DNA from: Candidatus Wolframiiraptor allenii
GTDB taxonomy: Archaea > Thermoproteota > Nitrososphaeria_A > Caldarchaeales > Wolframiiraptoraceae
DNA: 48,674 nt
Direction of reading: 5' to 3'
Assembly: GCA_023539495.1 (NCBI GenBank)
Contig: JAKCEV010000002.1
Span: 1-48,674, forward strand
The position numbers and the translations under genes are program-made. How positions within the stretch are numbered: position 1 is the first letter of the stretch; every line of letters begins with the position of its first letter. Under the pieces are notes generated by a model. That model was not told where the DNA came from, did not search any database, and worked only from the letters and a program-made list of their open reading frames with translations. Shown piece after piece: positions 17,208 through 44,905 of the stretch.

Positions 17208-18209
17208 ATGAGCAGCAGGGTTGCAGAGTATTCTGCGCCCCCTCAGGCATATGTGTATGAACTTATAGAAGATCCCTTCATCGACGGAGCTTACTGTTAT
17301 GCTGTCAGGGAGTCCAGGATATTCGGAGACAGGAATATTCCGAGGAGAGGGAAGGTTAGGGATGTCTACGATCTCGGCCCTGAACTTTTGATCTATCACA
17401 CGGATAGAATTTCTTCCTTTGATGTTATTCTCAGGGATCTTGTCCCCTATAAGGGCATCTATCTCGCCCTCTTATCATCATACTGGTTTAGGTTGAGCAG
17501 AGATGTCTTCCCAAATCACCTGATCGAGCAGGTGAATGAGAGGATGCTGAGAGTCATCAAAGCTCAGAGAATAGATATTGAGTGGGTTGTGAGGGGCTAT
17601 CTCTATGGTTCTGCTTGGAGGGCCTATAAGGCTGGTGTTAAGGAGATATCTGGTGTTAGGCTCCCAAATGGTCTTCAGCTTGCTGAAGAGCTTCCGGAGC
17701 CTATTCTGACCCCTACTACCAAGAGCGATGTGGGCCATGATGAAGAGATCTCGAAAGATGAAGCGCTAAGAAGAGGAATAGTCACGAGGGACGAGTGGGT
17801 GGAGTTAGAGGAGGCTTCAATCAAGCTCTACGAGTTCTATCGGAGGGAGGCTAAGAGCCGAGGAATAATCGTTGCCGATGTTAAGCTTGAATTTGGAAGA
17901 TGTGATGGTGGCCTGATACAGATTGATGAGCCCGCGACACATGATTCGGCAAGGTTATGGTTGGAAAAGTATTATGTTCCTGGGAGATCGCAGGAGGCTT
18001 ACTGTCTCGATAAAGAGTTCCTTAGAGCATGTTTGAGGGCTATGGGGTACAATGGTGAAGGTGACCCACCAAGACTCACGCATGAGATCATAAGACAGAT
18101 TGCTCTGAGGGTTAAGGGAGCATATGAGGTTATAACCGGAATAAGACCTTCACGAGATCTAACCCTGTTAAGCGTTGAGGAGGTTTTAGAGGGACTTAGC
18201 AATGAGTGA
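17208..18209 (+). CDS. purC: SAICAR synthetase
   Basis: Phosphoribosylaminoimidazole-succinocarboxamide synthase, joining CAIR and aspartate with ATP in IMP synthesis. Motifs are RRGKVRDVYDLG (about 46-57), TDRISSFDV, VVRGYLYGSAWR, and the C-terminal VADVKLEFG and IDEPATHDSARLW blocks. At 333 aa it is longer than the usual 240-300 because of an N-terminal extension of some 30-40 residues (MSSRVAEYSAPP...). An internal start is possible, but no ATG lies close to the conserved region. First gene of the purine operon; it overlaps purF by 8 bases. Confidence 0.95.
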   Translation: MSSRVAEYSAPPQAYVYELIEDPFIDGAYCYAVRESRIFGDRNIPRRGKVRDVYDLGPELLIYHTDRISSFDVILRDLVPYKGIYLALLSSYWFRLSRDVFPNHLIEQVNERMLRVIKAQRIDIEWVVRGYLYGSAWRAYKAGVKEISGVRLPNGLQLAEELPEPILTPTTKSDVGHDEEISKDEALRRGIVTRDEWVELEEASIKLYEFYRREAKSRGIIVADVKLEFGRCDGGLIQIDEPATHDSARLWLEKYYVPGRSQEAYCLDKEFLRACLRAMGYNGEGDPPRLTHEIIRQIALRVKGAYEVITGIRPSRDLTLLSVEEVLEGLSNE

Positions 18210-19710
18210 AGTAATGAGTGATGCAATAAGAGAGCACTGCGGTGTTGTCGGTATGATGTGTCGAGATGAGAAGATTGTGTCATGCCTATATTGGTCTCTC
18301 TTAACTCTGAATCATCGCGGTCATGAGTCATATGGTGTCGCAGTTTTAAGCCCTGACGGTCATGTGAGTGTTGAGAAGGGTCTAGGTCTAATTTCGGATT
18401 TAAGCTTGGAGGAGTTTCATGCTTGGGAAAAGGAACTTAGGGGTCGACTCGGGATAGGACATGTCAGGTATGCGACCTCCGGCCAATTATCGAGTAAGGC
18501 TGACCTCTTTGCAGATGCTCAGCCGGTTGCCGATGAGCATCTTGGGAAGAATCTTTGCATCGCCTTTAATGGAAATGTGACGAACCTCCTCCAGGTATCA
18601 GAGGAACTCGCTAGCGGGGCGAGCAAGAGGTCAGATGCTCACGTATTACTACGCGTCCTCTTAGAGGAGTATGTTAAGAATGATGATGTAACCGATGTGC
18701 TCAGGCTGATTTGCGAGAAGCTGGATGGGGCATATGCTATAGTGGGTCTAACTGAAAGCGGAGAGCTGTTCGCATTCAAGGATCCACATGGGATAAGACC
18801 ACTATCGTACGGATTCTCGGATAATGTTGGGATTATTGGGGTTGCATCGGAAAGCCCTGCGCTTGCAGTTAATGGTATTGAGCTGTCGGAGGAGCTTAAG
18901 CCGGGGGAGCTTGTGCTCATCGGCAATGATGGTAGTATTGAAAGAAGGATCATTAAAGGTATGTGTGAATACTTCTGTGCATTTGAGTACGCGTATTTTG
19001 CCAGGCCTGATTCGAAGTTCCAAGGCCGCTATGTCTATGAAGCTAGGAGAGAGCTAGGTAGAAAGCTTGCACAAAGGTATAGCGAAATTGCAAGAAACGT
19101 TGACGTAGTGGTTCCGGTTCCACAGACTGCAGAGGATGCTGCATACGGATTTCACCTTGAGACGGGTAAATCTGTGGAGCCTGTAATTGTTAGGCATAGG
19201 TATCTTAAGCATAGGGCGTTTATAATCCCAGCGGAGCAGAGGAAACTAATATTACTGCATAAATATAATCTCCTGCTTGATAGAGTTCGTGGAAAGAAGG
19301 TTGCCCTAATAGATGATAGCATAGTCAGAGGAGACACGCTGGGTCACATAGTACGAATGCTTAAGGGTGCTGGAGCTAGGGAAGTTCATGTCTTCTCGAC
19401 GTTTCCGAAGATCTCAAGTCCATGTTTCTACGGAATTGATATGGCGACGTTTCAAGAGTTGATAGGGTTCAATAGAGATGAAGAGGAGATAGCAAGGTTA
19501 CTGAGCGCAGATTCTGTGAATTATCAGCTGATAAATGATTTCTGCGATGCTGTTGGGACAAACAATCTCTGCCTTGCATGTATTACGGGGAGTTATCCAA
19601 CACCCTATGCCCAGAAGCTGGCGGAGGAGGGCAGGAGGCTTGCTCTCGAGGGTAAGAGGGCTGAGGGCAGGTTATTCGAGGTAATGGGTGGAGGGAGATG
19701 CCGGGCCTGA
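18202..19710 (+). CDS. purF: Amidophosphoribosyltransferase, glutaminase-competent copy
   Basis: First committed step of purine synthesis: PRPP plus glutamine to phosphoribosylamine. N-terminal Ntn glutaminase with C13 exposed after a 12-residue propeptide (REHCGVVG), LNHRGHESYG, GIGHVRYATSG (R89) and NG at 123-124 for the oxyanion hole. The PRPP-binding loop reads VALIDDSIVRGDT. Cys residues in CEYFCAFEYAYFARPDS, SSPCFYGID and LCLACITG match the [4Fe-4S]-type enzymes. At 502 aa it has normal length. Its 3' end overlaps the second purF-like gene by 13 bases. The PRPP-site flexible loop departs somewhat from the usual G-R-T-F-I pattern. Confidence 0.93.
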   Translation: MSEVMSDAIREHCGVVGMMCRDEKIVSCLYWSLLTLNHRGHESYGVAVLSPDGHVSVEKGLGLISDLSLEEFHAWEKELRGRLGIGHVRYATSGQLSSKADLFADAQPVADEHLGKNLCIAFNGNVTNLLQVSEELASGASKRSDAHVLLRVLLEEYVKNDDVTDVLRLICEKLDGAYAIVGLTESGELFAFKDPHGIRPLSYGFSDNVGIIGVASESPALAVNGIELSEELKPGELVLIGNDGSIERRIIKGMCEYFCAFEYAYFARPDSKFQGRYVYEARRELGRKLAQRYSEIARNVDVVVPVPQTAEDAAYGFHLETGKSVEPVIVRHRYLKHRAFIIPAEQRKLILLHKYNLLLDRVRGKKVALIDDSIVRGDTLGHIVRMLKGAGAREVHVFSTFPKISSPCFYGIDMATFQELIGFNRDEEEIARLLSADSVNYQLINDFCDAVGTNNLCLACITGSYPTPYAQKLAEEGRRLALEGKRAEGRLFEVMGGGRCRA

Positions 19711-20999
19711 TAGGGATCTATCCCTTTGGGCTTGGAAGGGAGAATTGGAGGCTTGCACGCTTTGTCTATTATGGCCTGTTAGCCCTCCAAAATAGAGGTC
19801 AAGAACTCGCGGCGATAATAACGCATGAAGACGAGGGATTCCATAGCCTCTCTGGAGAGGGCTTCGTTGATGAGGTGTTCACTGAGGATGCCTTAAACAC
19901 TATGCCGGGATTCATTGGTATAGGTTATGTTGCGCCGAGTAAGGATCAGCGTCCAATATTCACCGAAACACCTATCCGAATGGTCTTAGTTGGTGATGGT
20001 AAGCCAGACCTTGAGAATGGTGTCCAAGCCTCTTGGAAGGCGTTTGGAGAGCTGCTTGCAGATGAGATCTCGAGATCTGGTGACTCGTTAAAGGCGGCGA
20101 AGCGGGTTATCGAGGAGGTTGACGGCGGCTACTCGTTTGTGGCATTGACGGAGAATCAAGAACTGATAGCAGGCCGAGATATTCATGGGGTTAAGCCCCT
20201 TGAAATCGGGTCTCTCGGATTTGACCTCGGAGCGGTGGTTTCGGAATCATCAGCCCTAGATGTGCTTGGGATGGAGCATGTTGCTCACATTAAGCCTGGA
20301 GAAGTTGTGAGGTTTGATCCATATAGTATAGAAAGGTCTCGGGCGAAGCCCCGCAACAAGCCGAATATGAGTAGGTGTAGCTTTGAGTATGTTTACCTCG
20401 CGAGGCCAGACTCGGTCATAGATGGTATAAGCGTCTACTCGGTTAGAGAGAGGATCGGAATGATATTGGCTAAGGAGAGACCTGCGGAGGCCGATGTTGT
20501 TGTAGGGATTCCTGAGACCGCGATACCATTCTCCCTAGGTTACTCGAGGGTTTCAGGCATTTCCGTCTCTTTAGGTTTCGTGACTACGGGTAGGAAGATT
20601 CGGACAGCGATTAAGCCATCGATATTTGAGAGGTTAATGGGTGTTCAGCTGAAGCTGAACCCGATAAGATGTGTGATAGATGGAAAGGACATCGTGTTGA
20701 TTGATGATAGTGTTGTCCGTGGGACGACCTTGCGGAATACTGTGTGGAATATGAAGAGGAGGGGCGCGAGGAGGATTCACGTGAGAATAGGGAGTCCAGC
20801 GATAATGGCTTCATGTCCTTATGGTATCGAGATACCGCCGCCTGACGAGCTGATAGCGAGAGCGCTTGATGAGAGGGAAATTGCTGAGGTGGTTGGAGCA
20901 GATTCATTCGCGTTCTTGTCAATTGATGGCCTTTGTAGGGCAATAGAGCTTGAGAGAAACGAGCTTTGTCTAAAGTGCTGGGGGTGTGAAAGAGGATGA
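19698..20999 (+). CDS. PurF paralogue lacking glutaminase catalytic residues
   Basis: 433 aa, clearly PurF-related over its whole length (QNRGQELAAI, VLIDDSVVRGTT, LNP-x5-DGK, SCPYGIEI, LCLKCWGC). The Ntn active site is gone: the protein starts MPGLIGIY with Pro where the catalytic Cys should be. The Arg of the G-I-G-H-x-R-Y motif is missing (GIGYVAPSK, 74-82), and the oxyanion Asn is Asp (GDG, 99-101). PRPP-domain motifs and the Fe-S Cys ligands remain. It lies directly after the intact purF with a 13-base overlap and before purD (ATGA overlap). It may pair with the intact copy as a second subunit, use free ammonia, or regulate. The role is inference. Confidence 0.85.
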   Translation: MPGLIGIYPFGLGRENWRLARFVYYGLLALQNRGQELAAIITHEDEGFHSLSGEGFVDEVFTEDALNTMPGFIGIGYVAPSKDQRPIFTETPIRMVLVGDGKPDLENGVQASWKAFGELLADEISRSGDSLKAAKRVIEEVDGGYSFVALTENQELIAGRDIHGVKPLEIGSLGFDLGAVVSESSALDVLGMEHVAHIKPGEVVRFDPYSIERSRAKPRNKPNMSRCSFEYVYLARPDSVIDGISVYSVRERIGMILAKERPAEADVVVGIPETAIPFSLGYSRVSGISVSLGFVTTGRKIRTAIKPSIFERLMGVQLKLNPIRCVIDGKDIVLIDDSVVRGTTLRNTVWNMKRRGARRIHVRIGSPAIMASCPYGIEIPPPDELIARALDEREIAEVVGADSFAFLSIDGLCRAIELERNELCLKCWGCERG

Positions 21000-22549
21000 G
21001 GATAATGGGTGTTGGAGGCGGTTCTAGGGAACATGCTTTAGCCGAGGCGATAGCTAGGAGTGGTCATGAGCCGAGGATCTTCTGGGTGAGTGAGGATAGG
21101 AACCCCGGGATATATAGGCTTGTTAAGGGAACTGGAGGTGAATACGCGCTCACGAGAATAACCGATCCCTTGAAGGTGGCGTCGTTTGCGGAGCAGTGGG
21201 GGGTCGATATGGTCGTGATAGGGCCGGAGGAGCCAAACTTCCACGGTGTTGTCGATGAGGTTGAACGTAGGGGGATACCGTGCATAGGTGCGAGGAAGAG
21301 GCTCTCGATTCTAGAGATGTCGAAGGCAGAGATGAGAAGGATCCAGTGGAGATATGGGATAAGCGGAAAGCTTCTTTTCAAAACATATAGATCTTACATG
21401 GAGGCGATAAAGGATCTTGAGGAGCACTCAGAGCTTCTAAGCTGGCTCCAAAATGTTGCTCTCAAGCCTGCGAGACAGGCTGGCGGCAAGGGTGTAAAGG
21501 TGATTGAGGATGTTCAGGTCTATCTTCACGGCGAGAAGAGCAGGTTCAAGCAGAGGCATATGCGCTGGCTTGAGGACTATATGAGCGGGTACGCAGATAT
21601 TGAGGATAAGATTCTCGTTGAGGAGAAGGTCTGGGGCCCGGAGTACACACTCCAGTGCTTTGTAGATGGGAGGACGGTGATTGGGATGCCTCTCGTGCAG
21701 GACAATAAGCATGCGCATGAGTATGATATAGGGCCTGAGACCGGTGGGATGGGGTCCTACACGGGGAAGGGCTTCCTTCTGCCATTCATAACCCGCGAGG
21801 AGTATGAGCGGAGCCTGAGCATTGTTAAGTCTATGATTGATGCGGTTCAGAAGGAGACTGGTGAGCGTTATCATGGTTTTGTAGCTGGACAGATGATGCT
21901 CACGGAGATCGAAGGGCCGACTCTGATAGAGATGTACTCGAGGCTAGGTGACCCTGAGGGGGTTAATGTGCTCGCTATGCTTGAGACGGATATAATTGAC
22001 ATATTCGAGGCTATAATTGATGAGAGGCTCTCGGCCGTGAAGATACGGTTCTCTGATGTCGCGACGGTCGTGAAGGCGGTTGCCCCGAAGGGGTACCCGG
22101 ATTTCAGGGATCTTGCAAGGGATCATCCAGTTGAGGTGGATGAGGCTCTTATCGAGAAACTTGGCTGCAAGCTCTACTGGGGTTCAGTGCATCTGGATGA
22201 TTCCGGTCAAGTTTTGACGAAGGGGTCAAGGGTTGTGGAGATTCTCGCGTTTGGAGAGACCACGCAAGAGGCATCACAGAAGATAGAAGATTGCCTAGCT
22301 AGAGGTATTGTTAGGCTCTTGGATGGCTGGGGGCTCTTCCACAGGTCGGATATAGGTAGTGAGGAAATGATTAGGAAGCGCATGGAGATGGCTGAGCGTG
22401 TTAGAAGACTATATACTTATCGTGAGAGGATGGGGATCCTCGGGAAGAGAGTGGATTGGATCCCGAGGATCGGGAAGATAGACCCTGTTAAGGAATTGTC
22501 TCACGAACTGTTTTCACGCGTAGGAGGTGGGAGCTATGAGTCAGGTTGA
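20996..22549 (+). CDS. purD: Phosphoribosylamine-glycine ligase
   Basis: GAR synthetase: ATP-dependent joining of glycine to phosphoribosylamine. ATP-grasp fold with the N-terminal nucleotide-binding-like MGVGGGSREHALAEA, GPEEPNFHGVVDE, ALKPARQAGGKGVKV, DIGPETGGMGSYTG and EMYSRLGDPE. At 517 aa it is somewhat longer than bacterial PurD (about 430), as in several archaea. It overlaps the upstream purF-like gene as ATGA and the downstream purT by 14 bases. Confidence 0.95.
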   Translation: MRIMGVGGGSREHALAEAIARSGHEPRIFWVSEDRNPGIYRLVKGTGGEYALTRITDPLKVASFAEQWGVDMVVIGPEEPNFHGVVDEVERRGIPCIGARKRLSILEMSKAEMRRIQWRYGISGKLLFKTYRSYMEAIKDLEEHSELLSWLQNVALKPARQAGGKGVKVIEDVQVYLHGEKSRFKQRHMRWLEDYMSGYADIEDKILVEEKVWGPEYTLQCFVDGRTVIGMPLVQDNKHAHEYDIGPETGGMGSYTGKGFLLPFITREEYERSLSIVKSMIDAVQKETGERYHGFVAGQMMLTEIEGPTLIEMYSRLGDPEGVNVLAMLETDIIDIFEAIIDERLSAVKIRFSDVATVVKAVAPKGYPDFRDLARDHPVEVDEALIEKLGCKLYWGSVHLDDSGQVLTKGSRVVEILAFGETTQEASQKIEDCLARGIVRLLDGWGLFHRSDIGSEEMIRKRMEMAERVRRLYTYRERMGILGKRVDWIPRIGKIDPVKELSHELFSRVGGGSYESG

Positions 22550-23903
22550 AATTAGGGCTAGGATTCTGGAGGAGGCTGCGGAGTTTAGAAAGGAATATGA
22601 GGCAGGGCTTAAGCCGCTGGAGTCGCTTCGCCCCGATGAACCGTTCACCTATATATCGGTCGGCGGGGGAGAGCTGGGAGACTTAGTCATCACCGCGGCG
22701 AAACGGGAGCTCGGTGGAACAAGAGGCGGAATGAGGACCGTGGCCCTTGATAGATATGAAGGCTTCCCGGCACAGGATGCAGCGGATGTAAGTGAGGTGA
22801 TAAACATGTTGGATGGAGACCAGCTCGAGAAGGCGATAAAGAAGTATGTACCGAGCCCTGACAGGCCTCACGCGATATATCTTGAGATTGAGCGATGCGA
22901 TACCATGAGGATTTTCAAGCTTGGAGTTGAGCAAGGATACAGGGTAGTTTCGACACCATATGGCCCATTGATCGGGATGGATAGGCTGATGACTAGGATG
23001 TTCTTCGATAAGATTGGTATCCCGGCAGTGGAGTGGTCCTTTGCGACAAGTGCCGAGGAGCTTAAGAGGGCTGCAAAGGACCTTGGTCTACCTCTTATCA
23101 TCAAGCCAATAATGACTTCTAGCGGACATGGGGCGACAATAGCTAGGACGTGGGATGATATTGAGAGGGCTTACGAGCACTCCTTGAAACATGCTAGGGG
23201 GAGAGGAGACATAGTAATATTAGAGAAGTTCTTAACGGAGCTGAAGGAGAGGGGGACAGAGATAACCCAGCTGGTTCTTAGGCACTTCGACGAGGATGGC
23301 AAAATCGTTACAACGCTGCTCCCACCAATCGAGCATAAGAGGCCAGCAGCGACCTATCATGAGAGCTGGCTCCCGGCCACCATACCAAGCGACGCTGTCA
23401 AAAAATGCCAAGAGTATGCGAGGCGTGTGGCGGAGTATATTGGTGGTCTTGGAATTTTTGCGATCGAACAGTTCGTGATAGGGAATAAGGTCTACAACAG
23501 CGAGTTCGCGAATAGGCCTCATGACACTGGGATGGTGACGAGATGGGCGCTGGAAAGGGATGAGGGGGCCCTACATCTATTAGCATCGATTGGCCTTCCC
23601 CTTACGGAGGATGTGAAGGGTCTAAAGATTAAAGGCGAATATTGTGTCGCGCACGTCATCCTCGCACCTGAGAGGCTGCCGGAAAAAGAAGTTCGCGTGA
23701 AGGCTTGGAAGGCATCCGAGATAAACGCATACATTAGGCGTAAGAAATACAAGGGGATGGTATGGTACTTCGGAAAGCCGGCAGCATATCCAGGGAGGAG
23801 AATGGGGCTGGCAGTAGCGTATCATGAGGACTTAGAGAACGCGAGGAGGACTGCGGAGGACATAGCTCACTTCGCCGAGAAAAGCATAGTTTACGAGGTG
23901 TAG
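22536..23903 (+). CDS. purT: Formate-dependent GAR transformylase (PurT-like ATP-grasp)
   Basis: Folate-independent third step of purine synthesis, making formyl-GAR from GAR, formate and ATP via formyl phosphate. ATP-grasp features are IIKPIMTSSGHGATIA and the PurT hallmark ANRPHDTGMVT (typical family form is SPRPHDTG). About 455 aa against about 390 in bacterial PurT; the N-terminal region differs (SVGGGELGDLVITAAKRE), so the protein is a divergent archaeal member. The start at ATG 22536 is fixed by GGAGGTG at 22523-22529; an in-frame codon at 22527 is unlikely. A PurP/FAICAR synthetase-like role is a conceivable alternative, but the RPHDTGMVT motif favours PurT. Confidence 0.78.
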   Translation: MSQVEIRARILEEAAEFRKEYEAGLKPLESLRPDEPFTYISVGGGELGDLVITAAKRELGGTRGGMRTVALDRYEGFPAQDAADVSEVINMLDGDQLEKAIKKYVPSPDRPHAIYLEIERCDTMRIFKLGVEQGYRVVSTPYGPLIGMDRLMTRMFFDKIGIPAVEWSFATSAEELKRAAKDLGLPLIIKPIMTSSGHGATIARTWDDIERAYEHSLKHARGRGDIVILEKFLTELKERGTEITQLVLRHFDEDGKIVTTLLPPIEHKRPAATYHESWLPATIPSDAVKKCQEYARRVAEYIGGLGIFAIEQFVIGNKVYNSEFANRPHDTGMVTRWALERDEGALHLLASIGLPLTEDVKGLKIKGEYCVAHVILAPERLPEKEVRVKAWKASEINAYIRRKKYKGMVWYFGKPAAYPGRRMGLAVAYHEDLENARRTAEDIAHFAEKSIVYEV

Positions 23904-23911
23904 AGGGGCGG

Positions 23912-24163
23912 ATGCCAATATACGAGGTGGTGGTAGAAGTTTGGCTGAAGGACGGCATAGTCGATGCAGAGGGTAATAGCGTTACTGAGGCTCTCAGGGA
24001 TATGGGGTATCCCGTCAAGGATACTCGCGTCGGGAAGGTCTACCGGATAACAATGGAGGCCGCTTCCAAGGAGGAAGCTGAGAAGCTCGTAGAAGAGATG
24101 TGCAGGAGGCTCCTCGTGAACCCGGTCAAGGACAAATATCTCTTCAGGGTCGAGCAAAGATGA
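23912..24163 (+). CDS. purS: FGAM synthase subunit PurS
   Basis: Small bridging subunit (83 aa) of the three-part PurS/PurL/PurQ FGAM synthase. Typical beginning PIYEVVVEVWLKDGIVDAEGNSV and the conserved V-G-K-x-Y-R-I stretch. It overlaps purL as ATGA (24160-24163), indicating coupled translation of complex subunits. Confidence 0.95.
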   Translation: MPIYEVVVEVWLKDGIVDAEGNSVTEALRDMGYPVKDTRVGKVYRITMEAASKEEAEKLVEEMCRRLLVNPVKDKYLFRVEQR

Positions 24164-26538
24164 AGTATCGGAAACTGCCGTTTCCATTCGAGATCTATGA
24201 AGTGAATCTACTGGGCGCCAACGATAAGATGCTTCTTGAGATTAGCGAAGAAATGGGACTGAGCCTCAACCTTACTGAGATGAAGAACATCAAGGAATAT
24301 TTCAGGAGAAAGGGGAGGAATCCAACGGATATCGAACTTCAATCCTTTGGAGCCCTTTGGTCGGAGCATTGCAGACATAAGGTCTTCAAGGGGATGATCG
24401 TCGACGAAGATGGAAATGTTCTTGCGGATAATATGCTCAAGAACTTTATCGCGAGGGCGACCGAGGAGATAAACCCGCCTTGGATAATATCCTTCCTAGC
24501 TGATAACGCGGGTATAGTTGACTTCGATAGGGGCTATGGTGTGGCTGCTAAAGTTGAGACACATAACCATCCATCAGCGATAGATCCGTTTGGAGGGGCT
24601 GCAACAGGCATAGGTGGCGTGATAAGGGATATTCTGGGCGTATGGGGTGAACCGATAGCCTGCATTGATGTTCTATGCTTCGGCCCGCTCGATTATCCAT
24701 ATGAAAAGCTTCCGAAGGGGGTCAAACATCCCCGTTATCTCTTTAGAGGGGTTGTTGCGGGGATAGGCTATTACGGGAATAACATGGGGATACCGACGGT
24801 CGCGGGGGCAATATACTTCGATGAGGGCTATGTTGGGAACATTATAGTCTATGCCGGCTGCGTGGGGGTGGTTCCAAAAGATAAGTATGTCTTCAGAGTT
24901 AAGCCAGGTGATAAGCTGATCGTTATAGGCAATAAGACTGGGAGGGATGGAATTCATGGCGCGACCTTCGCCTCTGCAGAGCTTCATGAGAAATCGGAGG
25001 AGACCTCAAGACCAGCGGTCCAGATACCTGAACCGATCGAGGAAGAGAAATTGAGAAGGGTGATTCTCGAGATAAGGGATAAAAGCTTAGGATCCGGGGT
25101 AAGTGATCTCGGCGGAGGAGGACTCGCGGTTGGAGCTGTGGAGATGGCTGATAGGGCTGGATGCGGCTTGGAGATCCAGCTTGATAAGCTCCATTTAAGA
25201 GAGCCAAATATTGCTCCGTGGGAGATATGGGTTTCAGAATCTCAAGAGCGCATGCTCATTGCAGCCCCAGCAGAAAACGTTGACAAGATTATGAAGATAA
25301 TCGAGTCTGAGGAGCTCGAGGCATCCATCATCGGAGAATTCACAAATGATAAGCTCCTCAGGATATATTACTCGGGGGCTCAGATAGCTGAGATAGAAGT
25401 AAATTTCTTAACACATCCTCCGAGGTTTGTTGGAAGAGCTATGTGGACGCCGCCTAAGTATGCTGAGCCGGAGCTTCCTGAGCCTGAGGATCTCGCGGCA
25501 GAGTTACTGAAGCTCCTCTCCTCACCAAATATCGCGAGTAAGGAGTGCGTCATAAGGACTTATGATCATGAGGTTCAGGGGAACACATGTGTTAAGCCGC
25601 TTCAAGGGGATCACGCTGGGCCGAATGACGCGGTCGTGATCAAGCCCCTAGATGATAGCTGGATGGGCGTTGTGATATCTGTCGGCCTTAAACCCAGATA
25701 TAGCCTAATAGACCCATACTGGATGGCAGGCTCCAGCATAGAGGAGGCCATTAGGAATAATGTCGCGGTTGGCGGCAGGCGTATCGCGATCCTGGACAAC
25801 TTTACTTGGGGCAATCCCGAGAAGCCGGATAGGCTCGGGGCGCTCTACAGGGCGGTTAAAGCGTGCTATGACTTCGCGAAAGCCTTTGAGACGCCATTTA
25901 TCTCAGGGAAAGATAGCCTCTATAACGAGTCCCCCCTAGGGCCAATACTTCCAACACTCCTAATAACCGGGATAGGCATAATCCCTGATGTGCGAAGAGC
26001 AGTTACCATTGACTTAAAGGATCCCGGAGACCCGATATACCTCTTGGGAGTTACGAGGAAAGAGCTTGGAGGCTCAGAATACCTCAGGCTGAAAGGCTAT
26101 GTAGGAAATAGCGTTCCAAGGGTTTATCCAGAGGAATCGAAAAAGATCTTCGGTTTTATAACCGAGGCGATAGACCGCGGTTATGTCGCCGCCTGCCATG
26201 ATATCTCAGAGGGGGGATTAGGTGTAGCCCTCGCCGAGATGACATTATCCAGCAACCGTGGCATGGAGATATGGCTTGAGAATGCCCTGCATGAAGGCAT
26301 CTCAAGGAATGATTATTTATTATTCTCCGAGAGCAATGGTAGAATGCTCGTTGAAGTTAAGAAGCAATTTGAAGATGAGTTTGTTAAGCTTGCAAATATG
26401 CTCGGTATATCGTTCTCGAGGATAGGCTATGTTAGCCGGGGCTCAAGACTCGTCATTCACGGCTTGAATAGTGAAGCGATTATTGATCTCGAGAACTCCG
26501 AGCTGAGGAGGGCGTGGAAGGGGATCTTGAGGCTATGA
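24160..26538 (+). CDS. purL: FGAM synthase subunit PurL
   Basis: Small-type PurL, 792 aa, the ATP-dependent synthetase that converts FGAR to FGAM with ammonia from PurQ. Visible motifs are LWSEHCRHKVF (substrate/catalytic His), ETHNHPSAIDPFGGAATGIG, GSGVSDLGGGGLAVG, and ISGKDSLYNE and HDISEGGLGVALAEM in the second half. ATG 24160 is chosen because it overlaps the purS stop as ATGA and matches the family N-terminus. The longer frame starting at 24100 lies inside purS. Confidence 0.97.
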   Translation: MKYRKLPFPFEIYEVNLLGANDKMLLEISEEMGLSLNLTEMKNIKEYFRRKGRNPTDIELQSFGALWSEHCRHKVFKGMIVDEDGNVLADNMLKNFIARATEEINPPWIISFLADNAGIVDFDRGYGVAAKVETHNHPSAIDPFGGAATGIGGVIRDILGVWGEPIACIDVLCFGPLDYPYEKLPKGVKHPRYLFRGVVAGIGYYGNNMGIPTVAGAIYFDEGYVGNIIVYAGCVGVVPKDKYVFRVKPGDKLIVIGNKTGRDGIHGATFASAELHEKSEETSRPAVQIPEPIEEEKLRRVILEIRDKSLGSGVSDLGGGGLAVGAVEMADRAGCGLEIQLDKLHLREPNIAPWEIWVSESQERMLIAAPAENVDKIMKIIESEELEASIIGEFTNDKLLRIYYSGAQIAEIEVNFLTHPPRFVGRAMWTPPKYAEPELPEPEDLAAELLKLLSSPNIASKECVIRTYDHEVQGNTCVKPLQGDHAGPNDAVVIKPLDDSWMGVVISVGLKPRYSLIDPYWMAGSSIEEAIRNNVAVGGRRIAILDNFTWGNPEKPDRLGALYRAVKACYDFAKAFETPFISGKDSLYNESPLGPILPTLLITGIGIIPDVRRAVTIDLKDPGDPIYLLGVTRKELGGSEYLRLKGYVGNSVPRVYPEESKKIFGFITEAIDRGYVAACHDISEGGLGVALAEMTLSSNRGMEIWLENALHEGISRNDYLLFSESNGRMLVEVKKQFEDEFVKLANMLGISFSRIGYVSRGSRLVIHGLNSEAIIDLENSELRRAWKGILRL

Positions 26539-27317
26539 TTAGAGTGCTAGTATTAAGAGCTCCGGGCACGAACTGTGATAAGGAGACCGCGCGGGCTGTT
26601 AGAGAGGCTGGCGCGGCCGCCGAGATAATCCACGTGAAAAAGCTTATCGAAGACACTATCGATCTTCTTGATTATGATGGACTCGTGATTCCTGGGGGCT
26701 TCTCGTATGGGGATAGGGTTAGGGCGGGCGCAATATTGTCAGCAAAGATAAAATCAAAGCTCTGGGATAAATTTAAGGAGTTTGCCGAGGATACGAGGCC
26801 GGTTCTCGGAATATGTAACGGCTTTCAAGTCTTGGTTGAGCTTGGATTACTTCCGGGATTAAGCTATGGAGATGAACCGGTGGCGGCTCTAGTGCCGAAT
26901 ACATTAGCGAGGTTCGAGGCGAGATGGGTTTATCTAAAACACGTGAATAGGAATAAGTGTATTTTCACGAGGAGTCTTGAGAATAGAGTCCTCAGGATGC
27001 CGGTGGCCCACGCGGAGGGAAGATTCATGGCGGCAGCAGACATTGTTAAAAGAATAATAGAGAATGATCAGATAGTCTTCGTCTATGTGAAGCCTGATGG
27101 AAGCCTTGCGATGGGGGAGTATCCCTATAACCCAAATGGTTCAATGATGGATATAGCCGCCATATGTAACGAGCGTGGAAATGTTATGGGGCTTATGCCA
27201 CACCCCGAGAGGGCGATATACTCTTGGCAGCTCCCAGAAAAAATTAGCGACGGATATGCTGATGGATTCCCGATATTCAGGGAGATGGTTGATTATATTA
27301 GGGAGAATATCAAGTAG
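26535..27317 (+). CDS. purQ: FGAM synthase glutaminase subunit PurQ
   Basis: Class I glutamine amidotransferase of 260 aa supplying ammonia to PurL. The nucleophile elbow is LGICNGFQ, with the acid/base pair in MPHPERA. IPGGFSYGDRVRAG is the family's oxyanion region. ATG 26535 overlaps the purL stop as ATGA. The gene ends five bases from the convergent purE. Confidence 0.97.
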   Translation: MIRVLVLRAPGTNCDKETARAVREAGAAAEIIHVKKLIEDTIDLLDYDGLVIPGGFSYGDRVRAGAILSAKIKSKLWDKFKEFAEDTRPVLGICNGFQVLVELGLLPGLSYGDEPVAALVPNTLARFEARWVYLKHVNRNKCIFTRSLENRVLRMPVAHAEGRFMAAADIVKRIIENDQIVFVYVKPDGSLAMGEYPYNPNGSMMDIAAICNERGNVMGLMPHPERAIYSWQLPEKISDGYADGFPIFREMVDYIRENIK

Positions 27318-27342
27318 CTTTTTATTCAAGCTTTTTTGTGGC
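27318..27342 (+). terminator. T-rich terminator at the end of the purine operon
   Basis: Two T tracts (CTTTTTATT and CTTTTTTGTGG) follow the purQ stop at once. T runs of this kind end archaeal transcripts. They overlap the 3' end of the convergent purE. Confidence 0.5.
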
Positions 27343-27780
27343 CTCTCTTCTCATATTCTCTCGATATTCCTCGAGTTTCTTCTCGAGCTCGGGATATTTT
27401 AATGCTAGGATTTCTAGTGCTAGGAGGGCGGCATTTGTAGCATTATCGAGGCCGACGCATGCTACGGGCACGCCTGGAGGCATCTGAACGATCGAGAAGA
27501 GCGAGTCTAAGCCCATCAGCTTAACATCTCTTGGGACCCCTATGACGGGCTTTATAGTCATGGAAGCTATCGCTCCCGGGAGGGCTGCAGAGAGCCCTGC
27601 GACCGCGATGAAGACCTCAGCCCGGCTCTCCTTAACATATCTCCGGAGCTCCTCTGGAGCCCTATGAGCGGAGATCACTACATATTCAACCTCGACGCTA
27701 AAGCTCTTCAATAGATCCCTGATTCTATCCCCGATAGGCCGGTCATTCTCGCTTCCAATTATAAGTGAGACTAATGGCAT
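27322..27780 (-). CDS. purE: AIR carboxylase / N5-CAIR mutase PurE
   Basis: 152-aa protein of the PurE family, producing CAIR for PurC. Motifs are IIGSENDRP near the N-terminus, VISAHRAPEEL, AVAGLSAALPG (usual class I form GAGGAAHLPG), PVIGVP and LFSIVQMPPGVPVA. No purK is present in the window, so it may act directly on AIR and bicarbonate (class II-like). The sequence alone does not settle the class. Divergent from purM with 60 bases between the chosen starts. Confidence 0.94.
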   Translation of the reverse strand: MPLVSLIIGSENDRPIGDRIRDLLKSFSVEVEYVVISAHRAPEELRRYVKESRAEVFIAVAGLSAALPGAIASMTIKPVIGVPRDVKLMGLDSLFSIVQMPPGVPVACVGLDNATNAALLALEILALKYPELEKKLEEYRENMRREATKKLE

Positions 27781-27803
27781 GAGTCTTCAATGAATTTATT
27801 CGG

Positions 27804-27815
27804 ATTAATATTTAT
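27804..27815. promoter_or_regulatory. Bidirectional TATA element between purE and purM
   Basis: ATTAATATTTAT is AT-rich and nearly symmetric, about 29 bases from both ATG 27780 (purE, leftward) and ATG 27841 (purM, rightward). This is the spacing expected for two leaderless transcripts from one shared element. Confidence 0.55.
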
Positions 27816-27840
27816 CTCTGGGATGGATCAAAGGCTTTGC

Positions 27841-29013
27841 ATGAGTGACGACTCAAAGTATCTGCGGCTTGGGGTTGATTCGAGGAAGAAGGGTGTCGAG
27901 CTATTTAAGCGCCTCATACCAAATATACTCCCAGGAGCATTCACGCCAGTATGCCGAGATGATGAAAGGATGGATAGGGGCTTAATACTGCACTTGGATG
28001 GGGCCGGAAGCAAACCAATAATCTCATACCTATGTTATCGGGAGCTTGGAGGAAGTAGCTGGTTTGAAGGCCTTTCACAAGATGTCTTAGCAATGAACAT
28101 AAATGACGTGATCGCTGTCGCGGCCCAGCCAATCCTTTTCGCGGACTATATTGCGATAAACCCTTTCCGGATCCCGAAGGATGAGGTAATTGCCGAACTT
28201 GCCAAGGGTTTTAAGAAAACACTCGAGCTGCTCTCAAACTATCAAAAGGACTTCAAGATCACGCCAACCTTCGCAGGAGGGGAGACAGCAGATCTACCTG
28301 ATCAAGTGAGAACACTTGACGTTGTCGGCGCTCTCTTTGGCATTCTCGACATAGAAAAATCCCCGAAGCTTAATAGAATTAGGGCTGGTGACTTGATAAT
28401 CGGCCTTAGGAGTGATGGAAGAGCAGTTTACGAGAATAGGGAGAATAGTGGAATAATGTGCAACGGGATAAGTCTTGCGAGACATGTCCTCTTAAAGCGG
28501 GAATACTATCAACGTTACCCGGAGATCGGGGAGCCAGAGATCGCGGAGAAGTATAGCGGAAGATTTACGCTCGACAGCTTTATGGATGAGCTAGATATGA
28601 GCCTTGCAGAAGCGCTCCTATCACCAACTAGAATCTACGCACCAATCATAGCCGAGATACTCATGAAGAATCCAGAAGAAATCAAGGCCATGTGCCATAA
28701 CACCGGCGGAGGGCTGGCGAAGATAAAGAGAATTGGAAGAGGAGTAAGATATGTAAAGGATAATCTCCCGGAGCCAAGTCCAATATTTGGGCTAATCCAG
28801 AGGGAGGGTAAAATCTCGTGGAGGGAGATGTATGAGACATTTAACATGGGAATAGGGTTTGAGATTATAGTCGAGAAGGATTATGAGGATGAAATAATTC
28901 AGATAGCAGAAAAATATAAGATAACGGCACTAGTTATCGGGAAAATAGACTCCGTGGGAAACCCGGCAAACGAGGTTATAATAAAGAGCAGGCATGGTAT
29001 ATTCATCTATTAG
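27841..29013 (+). CDS. purM: AIR synthase PurM
   Basis: Phosphoribosylformylglycinamidine cyclo-ligase, making AIR from FGAM. Motifs are LHLDGAGSKP (usually DGVGTK), INDVIAVAAQPILFADYIA, TFAGGETADLPD, GLRSDGRAVYENRENSG, and the C-terminal MCHNTGGGLAKI and FNMGIGFEIIV. At 390 aa it is slightly longer than bacterial PurM. ATG 27841 is preferred over the upstream ATG codons (27823, 27790) because it lies at leaderless distance from the TATA at 27804-27815. Confidence 0.95.
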   Translation: MSDDSKYLRLGVDSRKKGVELFKRLIPNILPGAFTPVCRDDERMDRGLILHLDGAGSKPIISYLCYRELGGSSWFEGLSQDVLAMNINDVIAVAAQPILFADYIAINPFRIPKDEVIAELAKGFKKTLELLSNYQKDFKITPTFAGGETADLPDQVRTLDVVGALFGILDIEKSPKLNRIRAGDLIIGLRSDGRAVYENRENSGIMCNGISLARHVLLKREYYQRYPEIGEPEIAEKYSGRFTLDSFMDELDMSLAEALLSPTRIYAPIIAEILMKNPEEIKAMCHNTGGGLAKIKRIGRGVRYVKDNLPEPSPIFGLIQREGKISWREMYETFNMGIGFEIIVEKDYEDEIIQIAEKYKITALVIGKIDSVGNPANEVIIKSRHGIFIY

Positions 29014-40531: not shown

Positions 40532-42103
40532 TTATCTCGCGGCGGCTCCGGGTTGCTTCCTCGGATCTGAGATGGCTAAGAAGAGGTCGTCGTTCCTGAA
40601 TATTGCTTGAACAGCGCCGAAGTATATGTCTGTCCCGGGGTGCATTGATACTTCCCTAACCTTTCCAAGCTTCAAGCCGGCTGACGACAAAGTACCCGAG
40701 GCTACATCATCTATCAAGTCCTCTAAGACGACTTTATCACTTCTAACGTGGATCCTGCCTTCCAGTATTGAGGAGAGCGGGTCCACACCTCTTAACAGAT
40801 GGTTTGAGAGGACTTGTATCATGGAGGATATTATCCTCATTCCACCGGAGGCTCCAATTATAATCAATGGGGCGCCTTCCTCGTCAAGGATCATTAGCGG
40901 CGACATGCTGCTTGCAGGTCTCTTGCTTGGGGATATCGAATTTGGGTGGCCGCCCTGGGGTGTGAAGTCATGCATCTCATCATTCAGAAGCACCCCATGC
41001 ACTGTTACCCCGGAACCCATGAAGCACTCAATTGTTTCGGTGAGGGAGACATATGTCCTGCTCTTAGCATCTGCTATGCTTACTTGAGATGTCCCGCCAC
41101 TATCCCTAACCGGGTGATAGGTTATCCTACCCTCTTCGATAAGTCTGAGAGCCTGTTCGACATGATCATCGGAGAGAAGCTTCTCGATGTTAACATTATT
41201 GAAGGATGGATCACATATCAGGGAGCATCTCTCGTCGATTATGTGAAGGAGGAGGCGGGCGAGTCTCGGATAATAACTTTTGGCATCCAAGCGCATCCGA
41301 GTAAGGATCTTGAGAGCCTCCACCACGAGAACCCCGGAGCCGGGTGGCGGCATCGCGGCGAGCCTAAGCTCTCTGCCACCGAGATCGAGCTCGCATATAA
41401 TCGGCCTCCTCCAGACCGGGTTATAGCGCGACAAGTCCACCGATGATAGGAAGCCATTATTGCTTGAGAACACCTTGTCAAGCTCATCAGCGAATTCGCC
41501 CTCATAGAAGTAGTTCACATCATCCCTGACATTTCTCAGGATCTCTAGCAGCCTTGGAAAGGTGATCTCAGAGCCCTCGGGATAAATTCCTCCATCTCTG
41601 AGGAATGTTGCGCGGCTCTCTGGGCAGATCCTGAGCTTATCTAAGGACTTATCCAAGTTGGCCTTCATGCATGTGTTCCATAGCCGCGAGACTTGGCATC
41701 GTCTCATATACTCCATGACAGCCTCGATTATCCTACTCCACCTCATCTCGCCGAGCTCCTGATGGAGCGTCCATAGGCCACTCAGCGTCCCGGGGGTCGC
41801 CACAGCCCTATAGCCAAGCGATAGATCATCCTCGCCCCTATACTCCTCCGGCCTAACCCGAAGCGGCGCGGTCTCACGATAATCTAGTGCCCTGAATCCC
41901 GCATCCTCGGAGTATACCAGCGCGAAGCCGCCGCCTCCTAGGCCGCTCCACCCGGGCTCCAGCGCATTTAGCAGGAGTGATACGGCCACAGCTGCATCAA
42001 TTGCATTACCCTCCCTTTCGATAATCCTGAGAGCTATAGATGATGCCAGGGGCGAGTGGGATGCTATGGCTCTACGGCCTAGAGCATATAGGCCCGCGCT
42101 CAT
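40532..42103 (-). CDS. ggt: Gamma-glutamyltranspeptidase family protein
   Basis: 523-aa Ntn hydrolase that cleaves or transfers gamma-glutamyl groups (glutathione-like compounds, gamma-glutamyl amines). Family features are GNAIDAAVA near the N-terminus, LGGGGFALVY, DYRETAP (R76), the processing nucleophile T338 in GGTSQVSIAD, and GSGVTVHGVLLNDEM and GASGGMRI afterwards. No signal peptide, so probably cytoplasmic, unlike periplasmic bacterial GGT. It follows the metallophosphoesterase by four bases on the same strand. Nearby gamma-glutamyl ligase and permease genes suggest a joint pathway. Confidence 0.92.
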   Translation of the reverse strand: MSAGLYALGRRAIASHSPLASSIALRIIEREGNAIDAAVAVSLLLNALEPGWSGLGGGGFALVYSEDAGFRALDYRETAPLRVRPEEYRGEDDLSLGYRAVATPGTLSGLWTLHQELGEMRWSRIIEAVMEYMRRCQVSRLWNTCMKANLDKSLDKLRICPESRATFLRDGGIYPEGSEITFPRLLEILRNVRDDVNYFYEGEFADELDKVFSSNNGFLSSVDLSRYNPVWRRPIICELDLGGRELRLAAMPPPGSGVLVVEALKILTRMRLDAKSYYPRLARLLLHIIDERCSLICDPSFNNVNIEKLLSDDHVEQALRLIEEGRITYHPVRDSGGTSQVSIADAKSRTYVSLTETIECFMGSGVTVHGVLLNDEMHDFTPQGGHPNSISPSKRPASSMSPLMILDEEGAPLIIIGASGGMRIISSMIQVLSNHLLRGVDPLSSILEGRIHVRSDKVVLEDLIDDVASGTLSSAGLKLGKVREVSMHPGTDIYFGAVQAIFRNDDLFLAISDPRKQPGAAAR

Positions 42104-42107
42104 CCTC

Positions 42108-43058
42108 TCATCCTATGCGATGCCAGCTCCTCAAGCCATCATCATCCAGCTCAAGGATTAATCCTCTAAGTATCCCCGAGGAGTATTCTGAACCCGGGTT
42201 AAACACGATAGTCCCGCCGACCTTATCGTATCCAGGCGACTCGTGTATGTGGCCATGTAGGCCCATCAGCGGTTTATACTTTTCAAAGAACTTCCTCACG
42301 GACTTGCTCCCAACATTCACCTTCTCGATTTCGCCTAGGGAATATACAGGCCTCAGATTCTTATCAAGCTTCGGGGCCACATCTATCATCGTATTATAAG
42401 GCGGTGCATGGAAGCAGCATATAATCCTGCGCCAGTCCCTGTCAACTAGACCGGCCAGCTTCTCAAGCATCTTCCATAGATCCCCCTCACTCGCCTCCCT
42501 CGGCGTATTCCACGGTGTCGGGTTAACGTATTCAAATGATATCATGCCATATCCTAGAGGTAGCTCCACGAGTCTCCCTAGGGGGTAGATGACCCTGCTG
42601 CTCCTCTTTAGCACCGGGTCTATCTCGAATATGTCATCGTTGCCCGGCATGACTATGACCTGCTTATCGCTTGGGATATGTTCCTCTATCATTGAGACCC
42701 ATCTCGCGATATTCTCCGTTATCAGCCTCGAGAACAGCTTGTTAACCTTCTCGGGATCACTCTTCAACTCCTCAACCTCGTCCCTTGTGCAGATGTATGG
42801 GTATATGCCGGAGTTCATAAGTTCGCTCCTCGCCTTCTCCAGCTCCTCGAGCCCGTTGACAATGTTTGTCTTGCCCCTGAAGGTATATTGGTATTGCCCC
42901 CCTCCAAAATCTATTATCGGGATTATCGCCTTCCCGGTCAAGTCTCCTGAGAGAATCATAATATCCACGTCATAGTGCCTCGGGATAGATAGGAACCTCC
43001 TAAACACGAGTTCGCTATTATGTATGTCTGCCATGAAGAAGATCTTGAAGGATTCCAT
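42108..43058 (-). CDS. Calcineurin-like metallophosphoesterase
   Basis: 316 aa with the five metal motifs: DIH (11-13), SGDLTGK, PGNDD, FHAPP and GHIHE. It probably hydrolyses a phosphodiester or phosphomonoester; the substrate is not evident. A TATA (TTTTTATC on the minus strand, about 43083-43092) lies at leaderless distance from ATG 43058. Forms an operon with ggt downstream. Confidence 0.88.
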   Translation of the reverse strand: MESFKIFFMADIHNSELVFRRFLSIPRHYDVDIMILSGDLTGKAIIPIIDFGGGQYQYTFRGKTNIVNGLEELEKARSELMNSGIYPYICTRDEVEELKSDPEKVNKLFSRLITENIARWVSMIEEHIPSDKQVIVMPGNDDIFEIDPVLKRSSRVIYPLGRLVELPLGYGMISFEYVNPTPWNTPREASEGDLWKMLEKLAGLVDRDWRRIICCFHAPPYNTMIDVAPKLDKNLRPVYSLGEIEKVNVGSKSVRKFFEKYKPLMGLHGHIHESPGYDKVGGTIVFNPGSEYSSGILRGLILELDDDGLRSWHRIG

Positions 43059-43122
43059 CGCCCTCTTTCAGCCCGGGGAAGATAAAAATGGGAGGATAAA
43101 AAGCTGGGCCGGTGACAGGCTC

Positions 43123-44781
43123 CTAGGCTGGCGGTATCTCGCTGAATATCTTCCTGACATCTATGCCCTTCTTCTTGTTCGCCCAGCTATAGTAGGCGTA
43201 GAGGGCCACCGCCAGTAGGGTCCAGCCTATCATCCAAAGTGGCGAGATCATCGTCGGGTCCTTAGCGACCTCATGCAAGCCAAGCAGTAGGAGCGCGAAT
43301 GTCGCGACCACTGCCGCTCCTCCAATAATGGATACGACCGGGATCCTTCCAATGGTCCCGGTATAGCCCTCCTTGAATATCTCGGGCCTTCTATACGGCA
43401 TGATCGTGGTGGCTATCGCTGAGAGGAACCACCTGACAGCCACAGCCGTGACCGAGGTTATAGCGTAGAAGAGCGGCCCATATTCTGGCAACGCTAGGAT
43501 GAATATCATTGCTATGGCGCCGGCCATAACTAGGATTATCGACCAGTGTGGTGTCCGGAACCTCTCATTAACCTCGGCGAGCTTTTCTGGGAAGAATCTA
43601 TCGAATGCGAGGGCGAAGGCGATCCTTGATGGCACCATTATGTAGACAGGGATACCGTTCATTACCCAGAGGGGCACGGCTAGGGTTATTATCACGGCGA
43701 GTATTGGGGCCCAGCCGCCGAAGAGTGATGCTATGAACACGGCCCAAGTCGGCGTCTGAACAGGGTTTATTTTGAGCTGACTATAAGCTGCCTCAGTATG
43801 CATCACATAGTTGTAGGCCGAGAAGAACTCCCTAAACCCTAAAAGTGTCAGGGATGAGATTGAGAGATAGTAAGCGAAGACGAGTATGATCGCGCCGACG
43901 ACTCCTAGGAGGAAGTTCCTTTTCGGCCTATCTATCTCGCCAGCCATATAATTGGCGTACTCCAGGCCCCAGAAGGCATATGCCGAGATCACAATGCTTA
44001 TTGAGAGCGTTACTCCGAGCGACCATGGGCCCGGCCAGCCCCATGCAGATGGATTACCAGTAACTGATGCGATATACCCCCTCCAGCCGGTTGCCTCCGC
44101 GACCTTCATTATCTCGTCATAGGCCCCAGCGCCATATGTCATATCCCATAACTGCTTGACCTGAGCGGGTGATAGTGTCGCCGCATATACCGCCCCGGCT
44201 ACCGTGACTATCCCAGCCGCTAGCGCTATCACGAAGAGCGCATTGACTACGTACTTGTAGACCTTGACGCCGAGCAGGCTGATAATCCCAAATACCAGCA
44301 CGTATATGAGCCCGATGACGACGGATGCCGTTGTATCGGTGGAGAGCCATTCTCCCAGCGCGACTAGGCCGCTGTTATGTGTTGCAAGACCTATCTGGAT
44401 TATGGCGCTGCCCCAGAACCATGCCATGAAGAAGGATAAAGCGGCGACAATCCAAATGTGGACGCCGAAGACCAGTAATGCCTCCACGTATCCGAGCAGC
44501 GGGTGGAGCATCCTCGAGATGCCAACATAGTCTGAAGCCGTCCGGGGCATGGCCATAGTTAGCAGGACCACCGCGAAAGCTGCTAAAACCATTATAGTCC
44601 CGCCAATGAGCATCGCCAACGGTATGTTCGCTCCAGGAGCATAGTAGCCCTGCCTAGCGGTGAATAGGTAGAAGCCGTCAGCTATAACATAGTTCGCCGC
44701 CATAGCCATCACGGAGAAGGCACCGATTTCCTTAACCAGCCCCGAAGTTTTCCTAACGAAAACTATCTCGTCGGAGCTCAC
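43123..44781 (-). CDS. APC-family amino acid permease
   Basis: 552 aa with about 12-14 hydrophobic segments. N-terminal FVRKTSGLVKEIGAFSVMAMA is typical of APC-superfamily transporters, followed by YAFWGLEYANYMAGEIDRPKRN in the conserved loop. It takes up amino acids or amines; the substrate is unknown. GTG 44781 is 26 bases from TATATAA (44804-44810), leaderless. Divergent from the glutamine-synthetase-like gene, suggesting uptake of that enzyme's substrate. Confidence 0.88.
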   Translation of the reverse strand: MSSDEIVFVRKTSGLVKEIGAFSVMAMAANYVIADGFYLFTARQGYYAPGANIPLAMLIGGTIMVLAAFAVVLLTMAMPRTASDYVGISRMLHPLLGYVEALLVFGVHIWIVAALSFFMAWFWGSAIIQIGLATHNSGLVALGEWLSTDTTASVVIGLIYVLVFGIISLLGVKVYKYVVNALFVIALAAGIVTVAGAVYAATLSPAQVKQLWDMTYGAGAYDEIMKVAEATGWRGYIASVTGNPSAWGWPGPWSLGVTLSISIVISAYAFWGLEYANYMAGEIDRPKRNFLLGVVGAIILVFAYYLSISSLTLLGFREFFSAYNYVMHTEAAYSQLKINPVQTPTWAVFIASLFGGWAPILAVIITLAVPLWVMNGIPVYIMVPSRIAFALAFDRFFPEKLAEVNERFRTPHWSIILVMAGAIAMIFILALPEYGPLFYAITSVTAVAVRWFLSAIATTIMPYRRPEIFKEGYTGTIGRIPVVSIIGGAAVVATFALLLLGLHEVAKDPTMISPLWMIGWTLLAVALYAYYSWANKKKGIDVRKIFSEIPPA

Positions 44782-44868
44782 GATTCTGAGCCGCCGCCAC
44801 CCATATATAAGAATTTTACAAAAACCTAGCGATTATGAAAGATTCTTCAGCAAAGGATCATTCTCTTT

Positions 44869-44905
44869 AAAAGTTAATTAGCTCGCTGGGAAAAGGTGAA
44901 TCACT
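44869..44905 (+). promoter_or_regulatory. Promoter and ribosome-binding site of the GS-like gene
   Basis: TTTAAAAG (about 44869-44876) is placed for a start near 44899, and AAAGGTGAA lies just before ATG 44906. This is a short-leader rather than leaderless arrangement. Confidence 0.4.

What the first reader, a model, noticed from the sequence alone, without database searches (positions are those of the whole stretch)
19698..20999. Tandem PurF pair: one intact, one with a dead glutaminase domain
The second copy lost Cys (now Pro), the Arg and the oxyanion Asn of the Ntn site but kept the PRPP loop and Fe-S ligands, and is translationally linked to the intact copy. A heteromeric PurF with split labour (glutaminase from one, transferase from the other) or an ammonia-using enzyme would be new.
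Basis: partly seen in the sequence, partly recalled or inferred. Interest (0 to 1): 0.7.

Follow-up and report, generated by a model that had tools for sequence, protein, structure and literature searches.

The report
Archaeal PurF paired with glutaminase-dead paralogue
Beside its normal first purine-synthesis enzyme, this heat-loving archaeon carries a second, old and well-preserved version that has lost its glutamine-splitting half but kept its sugar-phosphate half; the pair was reported in Crenarchaeota in 2011, yet what the second protein does is still unknown.

Summary
purF1 (18202-19710) is intact. purF2 (19698-20999), overlapping it by 13 nt, has Pro for the catalytic Cys, Ala for the glutamine-binding Arg and Asp for the oxyanion Asn, but keeps the PRPP loop, flexible-loop Arg/Lys and four Fe-S cysteines. 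It is not new: Brown et al. 2011 (PMC3261824) described "PurF'" in every Crenarchaeon studied and proposed an ammonia-dependent enzyme; I found no test of it. New here: PurF2 is one clade (49/49 sequences). It occurs in 104 of 397 Thermoproteota genomes (23 families), and I found no convincing genome with PurF2 but no PurF1. Its PRPP residues are near-invariant, dN/dS is low in both domains, and its dead domain has its own conserved motifs (F..W, G-F-D), so it is repurposed, not decaying. It is adjacent to purD in 59/73 loci. PurF1 keeps every transferase residue tested, and related archaea manage with PurF1 alone, so strict division of labour is unlikely. PurF1 and PurF2 have different histories, so this is not a recent tandem duplication. 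Most likely PurF2 is a PRPP-binding, ammonia-using (or sensing) PurF paralogue working with PurF1 and PurD; the mechanism is inferred, not shown.

The parts
18202..19710 (+). purF1: complete glutamine PRPP amidotransferase with a 12-residue propeptide before the catalytic Cys (codon 18238-18240)
   Evidence: TIGR01134 E=3e-97; all glutaminase, PRPP and Fe-S residues present
19698..20999 (+). purF2 (PurF' of Brown et al. 2011): full-length PurF fold, dead glutaminase, preserved PRPP site and Fe-S ligands
19698..19710 (+). 13-nt overlap of the purF1 stop and purF2 start
19701..19703 (+). Pro codon at the position of the catalytic Cys1 (A/P/T/S/G/M in relatives, never Cys)
19725..19748 (+). PurF2-only motif F10...W17 (F or Y in 48/49, W in 44/49)
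20217..20225 (+). PurF2-only motif G174-F175-D176 (49/49, 49/49, D 45 and E 4 of 49)
20601..20660 (+). flexible loop with PurF2 signature R-x-A...ERL-x-GVQLKLN (R302, K319 invariant; N321 in 46/49)
20703..20732 (+). PRPP loop DDSVVRGTTL (D336, D337, S338, G342 invariant)
17208..18209 (+). purC, start of the pur run
20996..22549 (+). purD, overlaps the purF2 stop; adjacent to purF2 in 59/73 loci
22527..23903 (+). purT-like formyltransferase
23912..29013 (+). purS, purL, purQ and purM on the + strand (purE-like AIRC at 27322-27780 on the - strand lies inside)

Best explanation
PurF2 is an ancient, functional PurF paralogue whose glutaminase half is dead and repurposed while its phosphoribosyltransferase half stays under strong selection. 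Most likely it binds PRPP-Mg and forms (or holds) phosphoribosylamine from ammonia that it does not make itself, inside an operon-encoded assembly with PurF1, which does the glutamine-dependent reaction, and PurD, which consumes the labile phosphoribosylamine. Shown: the dead glutamine site, the intact PRPP site, conservation, dependence on PurF1 for occurrence, and linkage to purF1 and purD. Inferred: catalysis, the ammonia source and physical association.
For: Glutamine side lost in 49/49: Cys1, Arg72 and Tyr73 gone, Asn102->Asp in 36/49. PRPP side kept: R311, K328, D345, D346, S347, G351, P281, T283, R259 and Y242 in 49/49, T353 in 48/49, Cys382/437/440 in 49/49, Cys236 in 46/49. Mutating the three equivalent PRPP-loop residues (Asp432, Asp433, Ser434) of Arabidopsis PurF markedly lowers activity (PMC7056826). 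PurF2's transferase domain is more conserved than PurF1's (mean column entropy 1.60 vs 1.69) and its glutaminase domain less (2.27 vs 2.16). dN/dS is well below 1 in both domains, mostly 0.03-0.25. PurF2 is in 104 genomes; 102 also show PurF1, and the other two sit at contig edges, one with a purF1 fragment just upstream. PurF2 is adjacent to purF1 in 52/73 and to purD in 59/73 loci; of 21 loci without same-strand adjacent purF1, 13 still abut purD, in family f13 with reversed order. PurF1 composition suggests pair genomes are more thermophilic (IVYWREL 0.446 vs 0.406, P=3e-5, not corrected for phylogeny), where phosphoribosylamine should be least stable. Brown et al. note that Aquifex PurF-PurD coupling was too weak in vitro and may need another protein.
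Against: No activity or complex has been tested. A non-catalytic sensor could keep the same residues. PRPP-loop Arg350 is Thr in 18/49 and position 352 varies. PurF2 is never found without PurF1, which is odd for a self-sufficient ammonia enzyme. In families f23b and part of f13 it is not beside purD, and in f30 it stands apart from both purF1 and purD; purF-purD adjacency is also common in single-PurF genomes.
Confidence: 0.42

Rival explanations
1. Regulatory pseudo-subunit: PurF2 joins PurF1 in a mixed tetramer and senses PRPP or purine nucleotides without turning over, tuning PurF1.
For: Needs PurF1 to occur; full PurF fold kept, including the dead domain, under selection; R307 is Gly in 39/49 PurF2 and lost in 12/47 paired PurF1 but in 0/16 single PurF, so this loop has changed only in pair lineages; 38 of 44 pairs lie within 60 nt on one strand, 12 overlapping.
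Against: A whole catalysis-type flexible loop with invariant Arg and Lys would not be needed for sensing; PurF1 and PurF2 trees disagree strongly, so no tight long-term co-evolution.
Confidence: 0.33
2. Strict split labour: PurF1 supplies ammonia and only PurF2 does the phosphoribosyl transfer.
For: Complementary loss in PurF2; overlap of genes.
Against: PurF1 keeps all key transferase residues in 47/47 (apart from D345E in 4) and PurF1-type proteins are the only PurF in most other purF-bearing genomes of the phylum. The ammonia tunnel of PurF runs within one subunit (established knowledge; for the channel).
Confidence: 0.08
3. PurF2 uses PRPP in another reaction, or protects or hands over phosphoribosylamine to PurD without making it.
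For: Own invariant motifs in the dead domain; own flexible-loop signature and changes at 279, 307, 313; purD linkage kept after rearrangement.
Against: Always inside or near the pur genes except f30 and G105; residues for PRPP chemistry are standard.
Confidence: 0.14
4. Decaying duplicate with no function.
For: Glutaminase residues lost; f13 members have a very divergent N-terminal domain, and 3 of 49 PurF2 lack Fe-S ligand Cys236.
Against: Kept in 23 families, one clade, dN/dS well below 1, near-invariant PRPP site, new motifs conserved.
Confidence: 0.03

Closest known systems
PurF' of Crenarchaeota (Brown et al. 2011, Biol Direct 6:63, PMC3261824)
   Same: Second PurF-like protein in the same genome, no N-terminal Cys, own phylogenetic cluster, close to purF and other pur genes; ammonia-dependent role proposed there.
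   Different: This window is a Wolframiiraptor-type archaeon. Here the set is extended to 23 Thermoproteota families, with residue-level conservation, PurF2-only motifs, purD linkage and the disagreement of the two trees.
Glutamine PRPP amidotransferase PurF of B. subtilis / E. coli (PDB 1ao0, 1ecb)
   Same: Two-domain fold (TM 0.84), PRPP loop, flexible-loop Arg/Lys, Fe-S ligands as in B. subtilis.
   Different: No catalytic Cys, no glutamine-binding Arg, Asp for the oxyanion Asn, tunnel aromatics Y73 and F313 replaced, R307 mostly Gly.
Mlab_0150 of Methanocorpusculum labreanum (Brown et al. 2011)
   Same: Extra PurF with the catalytic Cys replaced (Ser).
   Different: A recent duplicate in one species, not an ancient conserved clade.

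Membership tests
PurF' (Brown et al. 2011) | PurF-like protein without the N-terminal Cys | tested here: met
   Pro in the window; A/P/T/S/G/M in relatives, no Cys in 49
PurF' (Brown et al. 2011) | Separate cluster from the intact PurF, one of each per genome | tested here: met
   One clade, support 100; 102 of 104 genomes show both, the other two at contig edges
PurF' (Brown et al. 2011) | Close to purF and other purine genes | tested here: met
PurF, EC 2.4.2.14 (glutamine-dependent), for PurF2 | N-terminal nucleophile Cys and glutamine-binding Arg, Asn, Asp | tested here: not met
   C1, R72, N102 and D127 replaced
PurF, EC 2.4.2.14 (glutamine-dependent), for PurF2 | PRPP loop and flexible loop residues | tested here: met
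PurF, EC 2.4.2.14 (glutamine-dependent), for PurF2 | Glutaminase and phosphoribosylamine-forming activity | not testable with these tools
   needs an assay
PurF, EC 2.4.2.14, for PurF1 | All catalytic residues of both domains | tested here: met
   below the TIGR01134 cut-off of 350 bits (326.6), as is PurF2 (269.5)
Heteromeric PurF with split labour | Transferase lost from the glutaminase-bearing partner | tested here: not met
   PurF1 transferase residues intact
Heteromeric PurF with split labour | Physical PurF1-PurF2 complex | not testable with these tools
   no multimer prediction or experiment available

The most novel reading that the evidence does not exclude
PurF2 is a repurposed PurF subunit that thermophilic archaea use to make or carry phosphoribosylamine directly to PurD, solving the instability of this intermediate at high temperature; its dead glutaminase domain has become a docking or ligand domain marked by the F..W and G-F-D motifs.
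Probability: 0.18. Interest if true: 0.75.

Novelty: new member of a known kind. Interest (0 to 1): 0.4.

Why it matters
The first step of purine synthesis makes a very short-lived intermediate, and how hot-living cells pass it on is not settled. A second PurF that dropped its glutamine half, kept its PRPP half and stayed in the purine operon across 23 families is a concrete, testable candidate for an extra part of that step. The puzzle has been open since 2011, and it can be tested in genetically tractable Sulfolobales if, as Brown et al. report for Crenarchaeota, they carry both genes.

Tried and rejected
Wrong start codon hiding a Cys in PurF2: rejected, no in-frame start upstream. Recent tandem duplication: rejected by the tree and by about 40% identity. 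Decay: rejected. PurF1 of the pair with a broken transferase because of GDT instead of GTT in the PRPP loop: rejected, since unpaired PurFs (G044, G322, G372) share it. PurF2-only genomes: two candidates (G187, G192) are contig-edge cases. The named-genome scan for relatives gave only 3 loci. An RNA search of the operon found nothing. Paper searches for tests of PurF' or its essentiality found none in the held library; subscription journals are mostly absent. Asgard and euryarchaeal genomes could not be sampled with the tools, so distribution outside Thermoproteota rests on Brown et al.

Full report
What is there. The window lies in a genome of the same genus as Candidatus Wolframiiraptor gerlachensis (G003 and L033 show the same contig size, match position and 89% identity in PurF2). 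A purine run purC-purF1-purF2-purD-purT-purS-purL-purQ-purM sits at 17208-29013, with a purE-like gene on the other strand inside it. purF2 starts 13 nt before purF1 ends, and purD starts before purF2 ends.

The residues. On an alignment of 113 archaeal PurF proteins with B. subtilis PurF, purF1 keeps every residue of the glutamine site, PRPP loop, flexible loop and Fe-S cluster that I checked. purF2 has lost Cys1 (Pro), Arg72 (Ala), Tyr73 (Pro), Asn102 (Asp) and Asp127 (Ser) but keeps Arg311, Arg321, Lys328, Asp345, Asp346, Ser347, Arg350, Gly351, Thr353 and the four cysteines. The same holds across 49 PurF2 proteins: no Cys1 in any, no Arg72 in any, and D345/D346/S347/G351/R311/K328 in all. 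Its PurF1 also carries Asp for Thr at position 352, but unpaired PurFs in related archaea do too, so this is not evidence of a broken transferase.

Not new, but unexplained. Brown et al. 2011 (PMC3261824) described exactly this pair in every Crenarchaeon they studied, named the second protein PurF', noted the missing Cys and the clustering with other pur genes, and proposed an ammonia-dependent PRPP aminotransferase, a hypothesis they said would require experimental testing. In the held library I found no later test. One S. solfataricus gene list labels SSO0632 'purF-1'.

Distribution. With a PurF2 profile, 111 of 397 sampled Thermoproteota genomes match at E<=1e-90; seven of these are unpaired PurF1-type proteins, leaving 104 PurF2 genomes in 23 families. 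102 of them show a second, PurF1-type match; G187 has purF2 cut at a contig end and G192 has a purF1 fragment just upstream. Single PurF-like matches occur in 176 genomes (280 with any match minus 104 with two), and the seventeen unpaired ones I read all have Cys1. So PurF1 can live without PurF2 but not, in this sample, the reverse.

History. PurF2 is one clade with full support and is not the sister of its neighbour PurF1 (quick tree). In the PurF2 tree the window's group joins families f2 and f55 (support 99), but forcing the corresponding PurF1s together is rejected (p-AU 5e-47; the group was chosen after seeing the tree). At least one of the two genes was exchanged in one of these lineages. 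This argues against an obligate pair that has co-evolved throughout.

Selection. PurF2's transferase domain is more conserved than PurF1's (mean column entropy 1.60 vs 1.69) and its glutaminase domain less (2.27 vs 2.16). Between close relatives dN/dS is well below 1 in both domains of both proteins. The dead domain carries its own motifs, F/Y-x6-W after the first strand in the window's numbering (F10, W17; most relatives are three residues shorter there) and G-F-D at 174-176, essentially absent from PurF1. The AlphaFold model is confident (pLDDT 92.3), with low confidence mainly in the flexible loop and the C-terminus, and matches B. subtilis PurF (TM 0.84). This is a repurposed domain, not a ruin. 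In family f13 the N-terminal part is very divergent, and the two f13 members read at residue level, G052 and G059, keep the PRPP-loop aspartates.

Neighbourhood. Of 73 purF2 loci in which the neighbours could be read, 52 abut purF1 and 59 abut purD on the same strand. Of the 21 without a same-strand adjacent purF1, 13 still abut purD, and in f13 purD lies on the other side. purF-purD adjacency is also common in single-PurF genomes, so this is suggestive only. Families f23b (purM instead), part of f13 and f30 (isolated) are exceptions. PurF1 amino-acid composition suggests that pair genomes are more thermophilic than single-PurF genomes, without correction for phylogeny.

How it most likely works. 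PurF2 cannot hydrolyse glutamine by the PurF mechanism. Everything needed to bind PRPP-Mg and expel pyrophosphate is kept. The simplest reading is a PRPP-using, ammonia-using PurF that works beside PurF1 and PurD; a sensing subunit that does not turn over is nearly as likely. Strict division of labour is unlikely because PurF1 looks complete and its kind works alone elsewhere in the phylum. I put the catalytic-assembly model at 0.42, the regulatory model at 0.33 and the rest lower. No step of catalysis or assembly was tested.

Verdict.

Noticed in passing
window 17208-29013; G001-G021: The purine run is patchy: of eight sampled genomes of the genus (some incomplete) only G000 and G003 have a PurF pair, and the other family members sampled show at most marginal matches; the nearest PurF2 are in other families (f43 73%, f39 66%, f24 61%) while same-order f2 has 44-50%. 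Horizontal transfer or multiple loss of the whole pathway.
   Followed up: partly
L097, L122 (G088, G226): Two genomes filed in one family (f24) carry very different purine clusters: G226 like the window (61%), G088 of another type with purF1 and purF2 about 6 kb apart.
   Followed up: no
L084-L090 (family f21): In this family PurF1 has lost flexible-loop R307 and Y308 (B. subtilis numbering), kept in all 16 unpaired PurFs; a possible sign that PurF1 itself changes in some pair lineages.
   Followed up: partly
L104, L105, L121, L142-L150 (family f13): PurF2 is shorter, with an N-terminal domain the profile does not match; G052 and G059 have PRPP-loop Ser for Arg350.
   Followed up: partly
L153, L154 (family f30): purF2 stands far from both purF1 and purD with no pur gene detected within about 8 kb on either side.
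   Followed up: no
window 27322-27780 (-): purE-like AIR carboxylase gene on the opposite strand inside the otherwise one-directional purine run.
   Followed up: no
window 40532-46273: Gamma-glutamyltranspeptidase, an amino-acid permease and a glutamine synthetase gene lie close together downstream of the purine run.
   Followed up: no
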